NCBI GenBank assembly: GCA_030617815.1
Contig: JAUWUS010000017.1
Coordinates: forward strand, 1 to 33,691
Source: Gammaproteobacteria bacterium
GTDB lineage: Bacteria; Pseudomonadota; Gammaproteobacteria; UBA6429; Thiohalophilaceae
Direction of reading: 5' to 3'
DNA length: 33,691 nucleotides
Shown here: positions 11,479 through 33,396 of the stretch, piece after piece
Layout of the letters: every line of letters starts with the position of its first letter
How positions within the stretch are numbered: the stretch's first letter is position 1
Made by a program: the position numbers and the translations under genes
The notes under the pieces: model-generated
Databases searched by the model: none
Seen by the model: only the letters and a program-made list of their open reading frames with translations
Told to the model about the DNA's origin: nothing

Positions 11479-12015
11479 TTAACCGATTAAGGTATCAATT
11501 TCGACTAACTGCGCATCAACACCGTGTTCTTCTTTAACAATTTGTAATGCAGACTCCAGCGCCTTAACCCCTTCAGAAGCTTCGCCTTCGATGTGCATAA
11601 TATAAAGCGGTTTATCTTTATCTCCTGCAACATCCGATTCCAGATCAAGAATGTTTAAACCTGCTTCAGCTAGCACTGCAGTTACTTTACTGACAATACC
11701 GGCTCGATCTGCACCATAAACAGAAATGCGTACATCAGGAATTCTATGTTCATGTAACTTTGCATCAATCTGATCAATATGAAGATGCAAGTCCAGAGAA
11801 TCTGTCACCGTGCTTAAAACATCGTGTAATTCTTTAGTCCGTCCAGAAAATTCAACCATCATCATAATGCTGAAGTTGCCACCAAGACGCATCATGCTGG
11901 TTTCACCTAAATTACCACCACCATCATAAAGTGCTGCAGTAACATGAGAAACAATACCCGGCTGATCCTTGCCGATTAACGTTACCATGAACCATTTGTT
12001 TTTTGTTTCTGTCAA
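11479..12015 (-). CDS. Two-ACT-domain regulatory protein (GcvR-like)
   Basis: The 178-residue protein consists of two ACT domains. The first begins KWFMVTLIGKDQPGIVSHVTAALYDGGGNL (about 7-36), the second VRISVYGADRAGIVSKVTAVLAEAGLNILDLES (about 95-127). Both carry the Gly-x-Asp-x-x-Gly-Ile-Val turn that binds amino acids in this fold. The closest known role is GcvR of E. coli, which binds glycine and antagonises GcvA in control of the glycine cleavage system. No gcv gene is visible here, so the ligand and target are uncertain and I give no symbol. A good ribosome binding site (AAGGAG) precedes the ATG at 12015. It lies between the ZIP transporter and def. Confidence 0.85.
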   Translation of the reverse strand: MTETKNKWFMVTLIGKDQPGIVSHVTAALYDGGGNLGETSMMRLGGNFSIMMMVEFSGRTKELHDVLSTVTDSLDLHLHIDQIDAKLHEHRIPDVRISVYGADRAGIVSKVTAVLAEAGLNILDLESDVAGDKDKPLYIMHIEGEASEGVKALESALQIVKEEHGVDAQLVEIDTLIG

Positions 12016-12056
12016 GGTGGTTTCTCCTTAAATATTCTTAATGAATAAATATAATC

Positions 12057-12860
12057 TTAATGAAGAGTTGAATGTGCCCAGTAGATAACAGCTACACCTA
12101 ATGCAATTAACGTTATTTGCTGAAGAGTTTCTCGTAATTCTGTTCGTTTATGCAGACCAGGAATCAAATCAGCTACCGCAATGTAAATAAAACTTGAGGC
12201 AGCGATAGCCAAAATATAAGGCAAGGCTTGCTGCATGCTTTGCAAACTATAATAAGCAATGACGGCACCAACTAAGGTGGCCATACTCGCAAGGACATTA
12301 AAAAATAATGCCCGGCCACGTTTGTATCCACTATTTAATAAAATAGCAAAATCACCGATCTCTTGTGGGATCTCATGGGCAGCAACGGCCAGGGCAGTCA
12401 CAATACCCAGATCGATATCGGTCATGAATGCTGCAGCAATTAAAACACCATCAACAAGATTATGAACAGCATCACCAATAATAATTAGAGTACCACTGGC
12501 ATCTTTACCATGTTGATGGGCATGCCCTGATGTATGAACTTCGCTTGGTGAGTGCACCTCGCAATGACTCGAATGACAATGCCGCCATAAGACCATTTTT
12601 TCGAGTAGAAAAAAACCTAACAAACCAATCAGTATGGTTAAGCCTAAATCATGCATATCCACATTTTCATTCACGGTTATCGCATGCGGTAATAATGCTA
12701 ATAATGCCGCACCCAACAAGGCACCAATTGCAAAACTGACTGTATGAGGCAATAACTTTCTTTGATATTTGTCGTTAATCAACAGGAAGACGGATGCAGC
12801 TAAAACGCTGAGCACGCCACCTAATAAACTAAAAACAATAATCCAACTCAGTAATGACAT
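12057..12860 (-). CDS. ZIP-family divalent metal transporter
   Basis: The 267-residue inner-membrane protein has about eight predicted helices and likely imports or redistributes Zn2+ or another divalent ion. Family signatures are GDAVHNLVDGVLIAAAF in helix IV (His133, Asn134, Asp137) and AVAAHEIPQEIGDFAIL in helix V (His162, Glu163, Glu167), which form the binuclear transport site. A cytosolic loop at about 94-117 is rich in His and contains two Cys, typical of metal-sensing loops in ZIP proteins. The sequence is closer to the LIV-1-like branch than to ZupT, judged by the HEIPQE motif. It lies 32 bases after pgeF and 41 before the ACT protein, so it is probably in the rluD operon. Specificity cannot be read from sequence. 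Confidence 0.92.
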   Translation of the reverse strand: MSLLSWIIVFSLLGGVLSVLAASVFLLINDKYQRKLLPHTVSFAIGALLGAALLALLPHAITVNENVDMHDLGLTILIGLLGFFLLEKMVLWRHCHSSHCEVHSPSEVHTSGHAHQHGKDASGTLIIIGDAVHNLVDGVLIAAAFMTDIDLGIVTALAVAAHEIPQEIGDFAILLNSGYKRGRALFFNVLASMATLVGAVIAYYSLQSMQQALPYILAIAASSFIYIAVADLIPGLHKRTELRETLQQITLIALGVAVIYWAHSTLH

Positions 12861-21145: not shown

Positions 21146-21931
21146 TTACCAGATTTTAAAGTTACTGTTAAAAGTAACACGACCACCAACATCTTTTTTG
21201 CCTAAAAATGAAAGCATTTTTTCCAGTGAACCGCCTGTTTTACGTGCAGCTAACTTCATGGAAAGATTAAGCTGGCCATCTTTATTTAAGGTTAGTTGCC
21301 CAGTGGCATTTAATAGTCCGCCACTGTCTTTTATTTTACCCGATGTGGCGCCCTCTTTTTCAGCTCGAAAATCAATAACAAAATCACCAAAGGATTGACG
21401 TTGTGGTGAAATCATTAGTATATCGTTTAAAGATAATTTCCCATTTATGCCAACATAGTTATTTTTTTGGAAAAATGAAACTGGAAAATAACCAGAAACT
21501 TTTCCAGCGTACGAAAAAGGCATACCATAAGTTAATGGTTGTAATGAAGATAGATCAATCAAAAAACGTGTTTCTTCCAGTTCTATTCTACCCGAAGAAG
21601 AAAGATTAAGTTGTGTATTAATATATTGTTCATCATTAATAATAGACACATCCGCTGATAGCTCACCTATTATTAAATTTAACGGATGTAATTCCCAGTT
21701 TACTGAACCAAGCGCAACACCTGAAACATGAAGTTGTCTTGCATTACCCGACCAGATTGTGCCAGAGATTGATGATAACGTTATATTTTTTGGCAAATTA
21801 ATAGCCGCTAAAGCAACAGTTGCAGGTAAGGTGGTTATTAAAAAAAATAAATATAAAGCAATAACGATTAAAATAATTTTCATATTTTTCTTGTTATAAG
21901 AAAAATCAGGCAAAGAATAATTAATTTTCAT
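21146..21931 (-). CDS. gspN: Type II secretion system protein N
   Basis: The 261-residue product has an N-terminal helix (IILIVIALYLFFLITTLPATVALA) and then a mainly beta periplasmic part with LSSISGTIWSGNARQLHVSGVALGSVNWELHP, the hallmark opening of GspN. The last strand ends at the very C-terminus. GspN is an accessory inner-membrane component of type II secretion systems, of poorly defined role and missing in some systems. It is the last gene of the operon. Its ATG shares one base with the gspM stop (TAATG). A second ATG 16 codons in (NMKIILIV) is a possible alternative start, which would remove the unusual hydrophilic leader. Confidence 0.88.
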   Translation of the reverse strand: MKINYSLPDFSYNKKNMKIILIVIALYLFFLITTLPATVALAAINLPKNITLSSISGTIWSGNARQLHVSGVALGSVNWELHPLNLIIGELSADVSIINDEQYINTQLNLSSSGRIELEETRFLIDLSSLQPLTYGMPFSYAGKVSGYFPVSFFQKNNYVGINGKLSLNDILMISPQRQSFGDFVIDFRAEKEGATSGKIKDSGGLLNATGQLTLNKDGQLNLSMKLAARKTGGSLEKMLSFLGKKDVGGRVTFNSNFKIW

Positions 21932-25218: not shown

Positions 25219-25626
25219 TCACGGCGCTGTATTTTTTTTAGTTCTTTTCCCGGTAAAAGCAATAAATCGTACCACCGGCTCACCTTTTTCGTTTACCCGA
25301 TTTACTTCAACTTCCAGTCGACGAAGATCCTTATCTGCTGTATTTGACACCTTTAATTTCCAGCGCCACTCCTCATCAGCCATAAATTCATGTCCGCTTG
25401 AAGTTCCGGTGCCCGGCCAATCCGCTAACTGAATTTCATTCACTTTATTATTTGCCACCCATAAAGCAATGGTTTTATCTTTCAGGTATGCCAGTTGTAA
25501 TGCCTGACTTCCTGCAACTTTAATAATAGTGGCTAGTCCCATAGTAAGAACAGCAAATGCAACCAGCACTTCTAACAAAGTAAATGCTTTTTGTTTATAA
25601 CTATATTTACCTGGGTGTGATTTCAT
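25219..25626 (-). CDS. gspI: Type II secretion minor pseudopilin I
   Basis: The 135-residue minor pseudopilin nucleates the tip complex with GspJ and GspK. The core AFTLLEVLVAFAVLTMGLATI has Ala rather than Gly before the cleavage point, with Glu5 intact. WVANNKVNEIQLADWPGTGTSSG is a diagnostic GspI block. It lies nine bases from gspH and three from gspJ. Confidence 0.94.
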   Translation of the reverse strand: MKSHPGKYSYKQKAFTLLEVLVAFAVLTMGLATIIKVAGSQALQLAYLKDKTIALWVANNKVNEIQLADWPGTGTSSGHEFMADEEWRWKLKVSNTADKDLRRLEVEVNRVNEKGEPVVRFIAFTGKRTKKNTAP

Positions 25627-25635
25627 CAGCTTTTA

Positions 25636-26154
25636 TTATTCGTTAATATATTCAAGTTTTAATTTGCCATTAAAAGAACCGGTCAACTGATAATACGGAT
25701 GAGGGTTATTCTTTACACTCATTCTCATTTGAAAGGGTGTTTGTTCCCCGCTTGATAAAAAATACAATCGTAATGAATCTGATTCTTTATCTGTAAATAA
25801 TTTTTCCTTCGTTTCAGTCTCCACTCTGAATTCCAATGCATCTTTTATTGAGCGAGCATGAAATATTTTACTTGTTAACGGAATCCACTTTTTATCTTTA
25901 TATTCAAGAAATAAATATTCCTGTTTATTTATTTCCATTGCGATTTCTTTCGCTTGAATAATGGCTTCTTCTCGCACCAGCTTGATTAATGCGTGCAAAC
26001 GTTTAGCTTCTTCTTGCATTTCCCGCTCAATGCCTGATGATCCCATCGACAAAACAGCCAAACTGGTAACGATACCTGATAAAACAACAACAACTAACAG
26101 TTCAATTAAGGTAAAACCTTTTTTTTTATTGTATTGAGTTAAATTATGCTGCAT
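25636..26154 (-). CDS. gspH: Type II secretion minor pseudopilin H
   Basis: The 172-residue minor pseudopilin has leader KKKG then FTLIELLVVVVLSGIVTSLAVLSMG, followed by EAKRLHALIKLVREEAIIQAKEIAMEI, the GspH/FimT-type helix. Its sequence rules it out as the major pseudopilin GspG: there is no proline-based IVP-type kink, no calcium-loop region, and the tail is GspH-like. It follows gspF directly, after 30 bases, where gspG would be expected. Confidence 0.9.
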   Translation of the reverse strand: MQHNLTQYNKKKGFTLIELLVVVVLSGIVTSLAVLSMGSSGIEREMQEEAKRLHALIKLVREEAIIQAKEIAMEINKQEYLFLEYKDKKWIPLTSKIFHARSIKDALEFRVETETKEKLFTDKESDSLRLYFLSSGEQTPFQMRMSVKNNPHPYYQLTGSFNGKLKLEYINE

Positions 26155-26168
26155 TTATTTAATCCGTA

Positions 26169-26196
26169 GTTATTTAACCAGTCGTTACTTAACCAG
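26169..26196. repeat. 15-bp-period imperfect tandem repeat at the gspF stop
   Basis: GTTATTTAACCAG (26169-26181) and GTTACTTAACCAG (26184-26196) differ at one base of 13. The second copy contains the gspF stop codon and the first repeats it 15 bases further, in the same frame, giving two consecutive in-frame stops. It lies exactly at the gspF-gspH junction. Confidence 0.75.
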
Positions 26197-27402
26197 CTGA
26201 TTAAGATCAAGCACCGGTAATAAAATGGCCAGTACAATAATCAAGACTACAACGCCCATCACAACAATCACTAAAGGCTCTAACACTCCCATTAATAATC
26301 CTCTGGTTGTTTCCAGCTCTCTTTCCTGATTCGTTGCCGCGCGATCAAGCATTTGTTCAAGCTGCCCGGTGGCTTCACCACTGGCAATTAAATTTATTAA
26401 CATAGGATTAAAATAACCACTTTGCTCAAGTGTTAAGGATAAACTGCTGCCTTCACTCACCTTTTGTGCCGCCACATCCACTGCCTCACGCATTGGTAGA
26501 TTATCCATAACCTGTATGGATATGCGCATTGCATCAAGCACAGGAATACCACTTGCGGCAAGAATACTTAACGTTCGTGAAAATTGAGCTGAGTTTGCGC
26601 CCAAAACCAGTTTGCCCAGTATTGGCAATTTTAATAAAAACTGGTGATAACGTTTTTTAAAAACAGGTTGTCGTACTAACTTTTTAAAAATACCAAAGCC
26701 TATGATCATGGCCAGGAGTATATAAATAAACCACGCCTGCATAAATTCACTTGTTGCGATAAGTGCAATAGTCAAAAAGGGAAGTTGCTGCCCTGTATCT
26801 GAAAAGACCTTAACCACCTCAGGCACAACATAAGCTAATAAACCGCTAACAACAAGAATAGACATCACGGTTAATATCACAGGATAAACAAGCGCCAGCT
26901 TTAAACGTTGTTGCAATTGCTGGCGCTGTTCGGTGTAATCAGCTAAACGTTCCAACACCACATCTAAATGTCCTGACTGCTCACCTGCTGCAACGGTGGC
27001 ACAATACATTTCAGAGAAAATATGCGGGTAATCTCGTAAACCATCAGCAAGTGTGTGACCTTCGAGTATTTTTGCTCGAACACCTAGTAAAAGTTTTTTT
27101 ACTTTAGGTTTTATACTTTGACGCGCGACCGTTGCCGTTGCTTCATCCAGCGGTATACCTGATCGGGATAAAGTGGCAAGTTGTCGGGTCATTAATGCCA
27201 GTTCGGTGGTATTAATACGTTGTTCGAAAATCAGGACTTTATTTTTTTCGTTATTTATTTGTTTTTTAATTTCAGTGACTGTCAGCGGTACAAGCTTTTG
27301 TTCGCGTAACTGTTGTCTAATCAAGCGTGCAGAATCACCATCGACAACACCTTTTTTTTCACGGCCGTTTTGATCAAGAGCGGTATATTCAAAAGCACTC
27401 AT
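26185..27402 (-). CDS. gspF: Type II secretion inner-membrane platform protein F
   Basis: The 405-residue polytopic protein of the assembly platform has two copies of the T2SF domain. Copy one has LALMTRQLATLSRSGIPLDEA and YCATVAAGEQSGHLDVVLERLADY. Copy two has FSRTLSILAASGIPVLDAM and LINLIASGEATGQLEQMLDRAA. Three or four helices include VILTVMSILVVSGLLAYVVPEVV and the C-terminal VVVLIIVLAILLPVLDLNQL. Length is normal. It starts 11 bases after gspE. Confidence 0.96.
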   Translation of the reverse strand: MSAFEYTALDQNGREKKGVVDGDSARLIRQQLREQKLVPLTVTEIKKQINNEKNKVLIFEQRINTTELALMTRQLATLSRSGIPLDEATATVARQSIKPKVKKLLLGVRAKILEGHTLADGLRDYPHIFSEMYCATVAAGEQSGHLDVVLERLADYTEQRQQLQQRLKLALVYPVILTVMSILVVSGLLAYVVPEVVKVFSDTGQQLPFLTIALIATSEFMQAWFIYILLAMIIGFGIFKKLVRQPVFKKRYHQFLLKLPILGKLVLGANSAQFSRTLSILAASGIPVLDAMRISIQVMDNLPMREAVDVAAQKVSEGSSLSLTLEQSGYFNPMLINLIASGEATGQLEQMLDRAATNQERELETTRGLLMGVLEPLVIVVMGVVVLIIVLAILLPVLDLNQLVK

Positions 27403-27413
27403 TGTTAATCACC

Positions 27414-28940
27414 TTAATCTTCACGAGTAACGCGCAACACTTCTTCCAGCGACGTTTCACCCACAAGAATTCGACGAATACCATCAGCTCGAATACTGGG
27501 AGAATGTTTTCGAACATACTGTTCCAGCTCATGTTCAGCACTACCATCATGAATCAATGCTTTTAATTCATCGTCCACTTCAATTAACTCATAAATACCG
27601 GTACGCCCTTCATAACCTGTTTGATTACATTTATCACAACCATTCGGTAAATATAAAGTCAGGGGATTGCTTTCAGATATACCCAATAATTTACACTCAC
27701 TGGCATCCGGTTGATAAGGCGTTCGACATTCAGTACATAACAAACGCACTAGACGTTGTGCTAATACACCAATCAGACTGGATGAAAGTAAAAAAGGTTC
27801 AACACCCATATCACGTAAACGTGTGATCGCACCCACCGCGGTATTCGTATGCAAAGTAGAGAAAACCATATGACCGGTTAAACTCGCTTGCACTGCAATT
27901 TGTACTGTCTCCAGGTCGCGAATTTCACCCACCATCACCACATCAGGATCCTGACGTAAAATAGCACGTAAACCACGGGCAAACGTCATATCAACTTTGG
28001 TATTAACCTGAGTCTGGCCAATGCCGTCTATATAATATTCAATCGGATCTTCTATGGTCACAATATTTTTATCCGTATTATTTACCCGGCCAAGAGCTGC
28101 ATACAACGTCGTCGTTTTACCTGATCCTGTTGGTCCGGTTACCAAAACAATACCATGAGGCCGCCGCACTAATTGATCCATGCGCTTTAAGGTCTTCTCA
28201 TCCATACCCAGATTTTGTAAATCCAGGCGACCCGCTTGTTTATCTAAAATACGCATAACCACACGTTCACCATGACCAGAAGGCATCGTTGAAACACGCA
28301 CATCCACTGCACGTCCGGCAATGCGCAATGAAATACGACCATCCTGTGGCAAGCGTTTTTCTGCAATATCAAGTTTAGCCATGACTTTAATACGAGAAGC
28401 AATGAGTGGTGCCAGGGCTCTGGGTGGTTGCATCACCTCCTGTAAAATACCATCAACCCGTAAACGTATTAATAAACGATTTTCAAACGGTTCAATGTGA
28501 ATATCAGAGGCATTTTGTTTTACTGCGCGCGCAAGTAGTGCGTTGATCAAACGAATAATAGGAGCATCATCTTCCGCTTCAAGTAAATCTTCTGGTTCAG
28601 GCAGCGCTTCGGCAACACCGGATAAATCAAGCTCATCATCGAATGATTCCATGCCTGTTTGTTGCGACTGCATTTCATAACTTTGCTGCAACAAAGTATC
28701 AAAGGTCCCATCTTCAGCAATCTGTATCTTAGGTATTTTTTGAAAATGACGCTGAATTTCCAGAAGAACAGCAGGCGTGAGTGTTTTGCGGCAAATAAGC
28801 GAAAGGGTATTAGCATCACTTTCCTTAACCATAACACCATGACGGCGCGCAAAGGCAAAAGGTAAATTACCCACCTCAGAGGAACTGGTGATTTCTAAAT
28901 TACTGGATGCCACCATCGGTTGATTTTGACTGCTTGTCAT
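27414..28940 (-). CDS. gspE: Type II secretion ATPase E
   Basis: The 508-residue hexameric cytosolic ATPase drives pseudopilus assembly. It has an N-terminal domain that docks on GspL, then the catalytic domain with SDIHIEPFENRLLIRLRVDG, Walker A GPTGSGKT (269-276), the Asp box IVTIEDPIEYYIDGIGQTQVN, Walker B DPDVVMVGEIRDLET, and the His box LTGHMVFSTLHTN. The zinc-binding tetracysteine CTEC...CDKC is intact. The ATG at 28940 has GGAG upstream and overlaps the gspD end by 41 bases. A second in-frame ATG at 28916 would reduce the overlap to 17. Confidence 0.96.
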   Translation of the reverse strand: MTSSQNQPMVASSNLEITSSSEVGNLPFAFARRHGVMVKESDANTLSLICRKTLTPAVLLEIQRHFQKIPKIQIAEDGTFDTLLQQSYEMQSQQTGMESFDDELDLSGVAEALPEPEDLLEAEDDAPIIRLINALLARAVKQNASDIHIEPFENRLLIRLRVDGILQEVMQPPRALAPLIASRIKVMAKLDIAEKRLPQDGRISLRIAGRAVDVRVSTMPSGHGERVVMRILDKQAGRLDLQNLGMDEKTLKRMDQLVRRPHGIVLVTGPTGSGKTTTLYAALGRVNNTDKNIVTIEDPIEYYIDGIGQTQVNTKVDMTFARGLRAILRQDPDVVMVGEIRDLETVQIAVQASLTGHMVFSTLHTNTAVGAITRLRDMGVEPFLLSSSLIGVLAQRLVRLLCTECRTPYQPDASECKLLGISESNPLTLYLPNGCDKCNQTGYEGRTGIYELIEVDDELKALIHDGSAEHELEQYVRKHSPSIRADGIRRILVGETSLEEVLRVTRED

Positions 28941-32431: not shown

Positions 32432-32899
32432 ATGAAAAAAATCCAACAAGGTTTTACCCTTATCGAACTGATGATCGTTATCGCGATTATCGGTATTCTG
32501 GCAGCTATCGCGATTCCTGCTTACAACGGCTATATTACATCCGCTAAAATCAATGCTGCTCACACTAACGCGGATGCAGCATTCCGTTTAGCTAAAAATG
32601 AAGTGGCCAAACTTGCAGCAGGCGGTGCAGCGTCTGGCTCATTAGTTGTTCAATTAAATGCAGGTGGGAAATTAAGCCCCTTCAATAATGCTGCGGCGTA
32701 TGTTGCTGCTGCTACGACAGCTACTGAAGGACAAGTTGCAATTAACACCACAAGTGGTGATGCCACAATTACCCCGGGTACCGATACTGAAGTTACGATC
32801 TCTGTTGGTACAGGTGTAACACTTGTAACTGGTGGTACAGGCAACCTTGCTTGGGTTACAGTTTATGAGAATTCAGGCGTAAGGGTTGACGTTGAATAA
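32432..32899 (+). CDS. Type IV pilin (PilA-like, major pilin candidate)
   Basis: The 155-residue prepilin has a seven-residue leader MKKIQQG, cleavage before [24 protein letters not shown], with Glu5 of the mature protein intact, then the helix [21 protein letters not shown]. The C-terminal half is rich in Thr, Gly, Ala and Val and contains no cysteine, so it lacks the disulfide-bounded D-region of classical type IVa pilins. The sigma-54 promoter and a good ribosome binding site (GGAGA) point to high, PilR-controlled expression. It is not a GspG: the Pro-containing kink and the pilin-type core are PilA-like and the GspG body motifs are missing. A strong hairpin follows the gene. No prepilin peptidase or pilus motor gene is visible. 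Confidence 0.88.
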
Positions 32900-33009: not shown

Positions 33010-33396
33010 ATGATTAGCCCAAACTTAAAGAATGGCTTCACCCTTATTGAAATGTTGATTACCTTAGCTATTCTTAGTGTAGTCGCTTCTATCGCCATTC
33101 CAGCCTATAACGGCTACATCTTGACCGCTAAAATGACCGAAGCCAGGAACAACCTTGCCGCCCTCCGTTTGGCACAAGAAGAGAACTTCCTGGAAAATAA
33201 TAGCTATTTTTTTGGTGCTAACACCGCACTAGTAGCATCAACGAGCCAAGGCTTGTGGAATGCAACAAACGGGGATAATGGACAGGTTAATTTTAATTAT
33301 GTGGTAACGAATGTAGATGGGTGGACAGCGACAGCGACAGGTAATCAAGCAGGCACCAGTACTTTTAATGAAACGGTTACTATTAAGGCACAATAG
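33010..33396 (+). CDS. Second type IV pilin-like protein (PilE/ComP type)
   Basis: The 128-residue prepilin has a nine-residue leader ending NG, then [58 protein letters not shown], the pattern of the PilE/ComP pilin family. It has no cysteine. It shares [10 protein letters not shown] and the following TAK segment with the pilin 110 bases upstream, so the two may be old tandem duplicates, but their C-terminal parts are unlike each other. The ribosome binding site AGGGAA lies seven bases before the ATG at 33010. It could be a minor pilin or an alternative major subunit. The downstream membrane-protein frame begins 18 bases after its stop, so the two are probably co-transcribed. Confidence 0.85.
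   Translation: MISPNLKNGFTLIEMLITLAILSVVASIAIPAYNGYILTAKMTEARNNLAALRLAQEENFLENNSYFFGANTALVASTSQGLWNATNGDNGQVNFNYVVTNVDGWTATATGNQAGTSTFNETVTIKAQ

What the first reader, a model, noticed from the sequence alone, without database searches (positions are those of the whole stretch)
26155..26184. gspG, the major pseudopilin gene, is missing between gspF and gspH
The operon is otherwise complete and in canonical order (C-D-E-F-H-I-J-K-L-M-N), yet only 30 bases separate gspF from gspH. The major pseudopilin GspG is essential in studied systems and nearly always sits here. gspH itself is clearly GspH. Either gspG moved elsewhere, or another pilin-like protein forms the pseudopilus shaft, or the system is not functional. 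The other genes show no decay.
Basis: partly seen in the sequence, partly recalled or inferred. Interest (0 to 1): 0.62.

Follow-up and report, generated by a model that had tools for sequence, protein, structure and literature searches.

The report
Relocated gspG of an ordinary T2SS
The gene for the main filament subunit of this bacterium's protein-export machine is not lost: it sits intact elsewhere in the same genome, having moved once in the ancestor of the genus, so the gap in the operon is a real but modest gene-order change.

Summary
In detail: gspF ends and gspH begins 30 bp apart, with no gspG in the window. But gspG is not missing. A full-length, typical gspG lies on another contig of the same genome (C11:30126-30551, 142 aa; TIGR01710 181.7 bits, cut-off 88.85), with a conserved upstream promoter-like motif. 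Comparative genomics shows a relocation. Sister genera carry the same pilR-gspNMLKJIHGFEDC locus with gspG between F and H, and have the asmA-acyl-CoA-ligase site without gspG. In this genus F abuts H in all five genomes where the junction is assembled, and gspG sits beside asmA and/or the ligase gene in six of eight. The relocated GspG branches among the operon-borne GspGs of its family and is under strong purifying selection. In four congeners gspG follows an outer-membrane beta-barrel gene; in the window's genome only that gene's last 17 codons remain. One congener lacks barrel and gspG at the site, and no T2SS genes were found in it. Among 86 gammaproteobacterial genomes with gspF and gspH, only this one shows F-H adjacency without gspG. 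Most likely an ordinary, probably functional T2SS with a displaced major-pseudopilin gene. Alternative-pilin, decay and misassembly readings are not supported.

The parts
26155..26184 (-). 30-bp gspF-gspH intergenic gap, the ancestral site of gspG
   Evidence: Sister genera have gspG here; congeners G003, G005, G006, G007 share the gspG-less junction
26185..27402 (-). gspF, inner-membrane platform
   Evidence: TIGR02120 491 bits, cut-off 424
25636..26154 (-). gspH, minor pseudopilin
   Evidence: TIGR01708 93 bits, cut-off 80
25219..25626 (-). gspI, minor pseudopilin
   Evidence: TIGR01707 89.2 bits
24580..25215 (-). gspJ, minor pseudopilin
   Evidence: TIGR01711 163.3 bits
23651..24583 (-). 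gspK, minor pseudopilin
   Evidence: NF037980 313.3 bits
22410..23654 (-). gspL
   Evidence: TIGR01709 215.7 bits
21931..22413 (-). gspM (weak model match; supported by position)
   Evidence: NF007274 44 bits, below cut-off; same position in relatives
21146..21931 (-). gspN (by position and similarity to relatives only)
   Evidence: no NCBIfam hit
27414..28940 (-). gspE, ATPase
   Evidence: TIGR02533 707 bits
28900..30960 (-). gspD, secretin
   Evidence: TIGR02517 561 bits
31063..31983 (-). gspC
   Evidence: TIGR01713 154.6 bits
32432..32899 (+). type IV pilin; considered and rejected as a GspG substitute
   Evidence: 34.9 bits to TIGR01710, residues 6-48 only; no T2SSG domain
33010..33396 (+). 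type IV pilin with ComP_DUS match; considered and rejected as a GspG substitute
   Evidence: 29.9 bits to TIGR01710; PF16732

Best explanation
The locus is a canonical gammaproteobacterial type II secretion operon whose major pseudopilin gene, gspG, was moved once, in or before the common ancestor of the genus. It went from between gspF and gspH to an intergenic site between an asmA-family gene and a long-chain acyl-CoA ligase gene, downstream of an outer-membrane beta-barrel gene. Shown: the gspG is intact, typical and conserved, and the donor and acceptor sites are polarised by sister genera. Supported, moderately: it was inherited within the family. Inferred: GspG is made from its own transcription unit, processed by a prepilin peptidase, and assembles with GspH-I-J-K on the GspE-F-L-M platform as in any T2SS, acting in trans. 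The system is therefore probably functional.
For: Own genome: TIGR01710 181.7 bits over all 134 model positions at C11:30153-30545, no stop; PF08334 T2SSG and N_methyl domains; best solved match is GspG chain 5wda_A, E 3.5e-46. Acceptor site: gspG lies between asmA and the acyl-CoA ligase (or at a contig end beside one of them) in G000, G001, G003, G004, G005 and G007; in sister genera G014 and G034 asmA and ligase are neighbours without gspG. Donor site: G013, G015, G020, G022, G026, G031 and G032 carry the same gsp operon with G between F and H. Tree: the genus's GspG is one clade (99) inside the family, next to operon GspG of G020/G031/G035 (SH-aLRT 86); GspF also lies inside the family. 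Selection: between the more distant congeners 7-17 first-, 5-11 second- and 48-66 third-position differences; dN/dS 0.024-0.029 for the three pairs that could be computed. Promoter-like TTGAGT-N17-[GA]ATACT upstream of the barrel-gspG unit in all five species where the region is assembled; per-region shuffle chance 8e-5. Co-loss: G002 lacks gspG at the site and no gspD or T2SS-type gspF was found in it.
Against: No expression or secretion data. G006 has the operon but no gspG was found; its contig ends just past asmA, so this is inconclusive. In G002 the operon region is at a contig end, so absence of the operon is not proven. Single-gene trees of 140 columns give only moderate support for exact placement. 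The promoter motif was noticed after the fact.
Confidence: 0.95

Rival explanations
1. Another pilin-like protein, for example the type IV pilins at 32432 or 33010, forms the pseudopilus shaft and GspG is truly absent.
For: Two pilins flank gspC and share the N-terminal methylation motif.
Against: A full-length GspG exists. The pilins match GspG only over the common N-terminal helix and lack the T2SSG domain. Similar pilins sit at the same place in sister genera that also have gspG in the operon.
Confidence: 0.02
2. The system is decaying and non-functional after loss of gspG.
For: Only the absence at the junction.
Against: All other genes are open and gspG is intact and under strong purifying selection across the genus.
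Confidence: 0.02
3. The gap is an assembly artefact, or contig C11 is mis-binned from another organism.
For: The genome is a 130-contig draft, and gspG and the operon are on different contigs.
Against: The same junction occurs in G003, G005, G006 and G007. The same gspG neighbourhood occurs in five other congeners. GC is alike (0.39 and 0.40).
Confidence: 0.01
4. The operon gspG was lost and replaced by a gspG acquired from another bacterium (xenologous replacement) at the new site.
For: The barrel gene next to gspG was not found in the sister-genus stretches fetched, so the pair could have arrived together.
Against: GspG of the genus branches within its own family, near operon GspG of sister genera; its identity to three of those is 62-67%. 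Transfer from another member of the family is not excluded.
Confidence: 0.08

Closest known systems
Canonical gammaproteobacterial T2SS operon, gspC-D-E-F-G-H-I-J-K-L-M-N
   Same: Same genes and order apart from gspG; the same locus with gspG in place is found in sister genera.
   Different: gspG is removed from between F and H and encoded elsewhere.
Dispersed T2SS of Acinetobacter and Psychrobacter (PMC4713064)
   Same: A T2SS whose genes lie in several distant loci, conserved across a genus.
   Different: There the whole system is split into five loci, and the authors cloned gspG as part of a gspFG locus; here only gspG has moved and the rest stays one operon.
T4aP gene organisation, pilins apart from the machinery (PMC6668835)
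   Same: The major pilin gene is apart from the assembly genes.
   Different: In T2SS the pilins usually lie in the middle of the locus according to that survey; here the major one has left while the minor ones stay.

Membership tests
Type II secretion system | Secretin GspD, ATPase GspE, platform GspF, GspC and GspL above curated cut-offs | tested here: met
Type II secretion system | Minor pseudopilins GspH, I, J and K | tested here: met
Type II secretion system | Major pseudopilin GspG encoded in the genome | tested here: met
   C11:30126-30551, TIGR01710 181.7 bits
Type II secretion system | gspG inside the operon between gspF and gspH (usual, not defining) | tested here: not met
   30-bp gap
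Type II secretion system | Exports folded proteins from the periplasm | not testable with these tools
   needs an experiment
GspG major pseudopilin (TIGR01710) | Score above the equivalog cut-off over the full model | tested here: met
   181.7 bits, cut-off 88.85, positions 1-134
GspG major pseudopilin (TIGR01710) | Prepilin signal GFTLIE with the conserved Glu, and the C-terminal T2SSG domain | tested here: met
   GFTLIE invariant; PF08334 and PF07963
GspG major pseudopilin (TIGR01710) | C-terminal acidic segment of the kind that binds calcium in solved GspG (from general knowledge) | tested here: inconclusive
   D121, D134, D135 and DDIGNW invariant in the alignment; coordination residues not checked one by one on a structure

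The most novel reading that the evidence does not exclude
Detaching gspG is adaptive: placing the major pseudopilin in a separate unit behind an outer-membrane barrel gene decouples its dosage from the platform and lets one gspG serve more than one T2SS. Congener G003 carries a second, divergent T2SS that also lacks its own gspG, and only one gspG was found in that genome.
Probability: 0.1. Interest if true: 0.4.

Novelty: new member of a known kind. Interest (0 to 1): 0.18.

Why it matters
It resolves an apparent paradox, a complete T2SS without its essential shaft subunit, as a cleanly polarised single-gene relocation. It also warns that locus-based annotation will call such systems incomplete. 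The genus gives a natural case for studying separate control of major-pseudopilin dosage, but the machine itself appears standard.

Tried and rejected
Flanking type IV pilins as GspG substitutes (rejected: no T2SSG domain). Misjoin at the junction (rejected: same junction in four congeners). Mis-binning of C11 (rejected: conserved neighbourhood). A deletion scar at the junction: only a near-duplicate of the gspF stop region (CTGGTTAAGTAA / CTGGTTAAATAA) is visible by eye in this genome, and the repeat finder reports no direct repeat, so no mechanism of excision can be read. dN/dS for pairs with G000 could not be computed, so codon-position counts were used instead. The sigma-70 consensus scan was uninformative (5 found, 3.4 expected); the cross-species motif came from comparing the upstream regions. 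Literature searches found no report of an isolated gspG relocation, but the library is partial.

Full report
What is at the junction. On the minus strand gspF ends at 26185 and gspH starts at 26154, leaving 30 bp. GspC, D, E, F, H, I, J, K and L all exceed their curated NCBIfam cut-offs. GspM is weak and GspN has no model hit, so these two are named from position and from the same locus in relatives. Nothing in the window is a GspG: the nearest matches are the shared N-terminal helices of pilins and minor pseudopilins.

Where gspG is. A search of the window's own genome (2.34 Mb, 130 contigs, 93% complete) found one match above the TIGR01710 cut-off, at C11:30153-30545, 181.7 bits over the full model. 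It encodes 142 aa with GFTLIE and a T2SSG domain and aligns over the mature length to a solved GspG, 5wda_A. Its neighbours are mutY and an asmA-family gene on one side and a long-chain acyl-CoA ligase, thiG and trmB on the other (these neighbour names other than AsmA and AMP-binding are from recognition of the sequences).

How old and how general. The genus has eight held genomes. gspF and gspH are adjacent without gspG in all five where that junction is assembled (G000, G003, G005, G006, G007). gspG lies at the asmA-ligase site in G000, G003, G005 and G007, and beside the surviving neighbour at a contig end in G001 and G004. In G004 the middle of the operon falls in an assembly gap between gspL and gspC, so the operon is present there too. 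G006 is undecided because its contig ends just past asmA. G002 has asmA and the ligase 160 bp apart with neither barrel nor gspG, and no gspD, T2SS-type gspF or gspG was found in its 88% complete assembly. A four-gene tree puts G002 beside G007 (97/100), which has gspG at the site, so absence in G002 is best read as loss.

Direction of the change. In seven genomes of sister genera the same locus (gspN-M-L-K-J-I-H-G-F-E-D-C, mostly with pilR on one side and pilA on the other) has gspG between F and H. In sister genera G014 and G034 asmA and the ligase are neighbours without gspG. The ancestral state at both sites is therefore clear. GspG of the genus forms one clade inside the family's operon-borne GspGs, and GspF behaves the same way, which favours an internal move over replacement from outside, with moderate support.

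The new home. In G003, G004, G005 and G007 gspG is the second gene of an apparent two-gene unit behind a 277-298 aa protein. That protein is predicted to be an outer-membrane-type beta-barrel (pLDDT 78, from four sequences), with OmpT and OpcA among the best structural matches. It has no Pfam match. In the window's genome the barrel gene is gone except for its last 17 codons and stop (EPRSETRNVGIEITWLW*, L010:8036-8089). A motif TTGAGT-17-[GA]ATACT is kept upstream in all five species where the region is assembled, with a per-region shuffle chance of 8e-5; this was noticed after inspection and is not proof of a promoter.

Is it functional. The gene is open in all six genomes and differs mostly at third codon positions (for example 13, 8 and 54 between G000 and G004), with dN/dS of 0.024-0.029 in the three pairs that could be computed. 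Function itself was not tested.

How unusual. In 140 gammaproteobacterial genomes, 86 have both gspF and gspH. F-G-H order was found in 44, G beside H with F elsewhere or further off in 36, G beside F with H elsewhere in 1, G away from both in 3, no G hit in 1, and F-H adjacency without G in 1, this genome. Some 'elsewhere' cases may reflect contig breaks. Scattered T2SS genes are known in Acinetobacter and Psychrobacter (PMC4713064), so T2SS parts acting from separate loci are not a new principle. A large survey places T2SS pilins usually in the middle of the locus (PMC6668835).

Taxonomy. The congeners with public titles are metagenome-assembled Gammaproteobacteria, one labelled uncultured Ectothiorhodospiraceae; the genus was not named further.

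Verdict. Real observation, ordinary explanation: one relocated gene, with a polarised history.

Noticed in passing
G003 contigs C65 and C12 (L109:15-8939 and L107:6855-9857): Congener G003 carries a second, divergent T2SS (H-I-J-K-L-M-N-D-E-F, with gspC nearby) that also lacks its own gspG; only one gspG was found in that genome. The two contigs overlap by 519 bp at 95% identity, so strain mixture or contamination is possible.
   Followed up: partly
L011:6938-7603 (G000:C118): A 221-aa pseudopilin-like protein with a weak T2SSG match and an internal run of acidic GRSDDDDYEH-type repeats.
   Followed up: no
L010:8036-8089 and L103:5364-6197: An outer-membrane barrel gene upstream of gspG in four congeners is reduced to its last 17 codons in the window's genome.
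   Followed up: yes
L010:8600-8700: A palindromic repeat (TTCGTGCTGAGCTTGTCGAAG...) lies just downstream of the relocated gspG; it might be a mobile or REP-like element.
   Followed up: no
L010 about 11940-12060: A short intergenic stretch matches at many places in congener G004, as if a dispersed repeat.
   Followed up: no
window 33010-33396: The second pilin next to gspC matches ComP_DUS (PF16732), the DNA-uptake-sequence receptor family.
   Followed up: no
genome G120 (same class): A 99% complete genome with gspF and gspH hits on different contigs but no GspG match at E 1e-25; a possible real case of absent or very divergent gspG.
   Followed up: no
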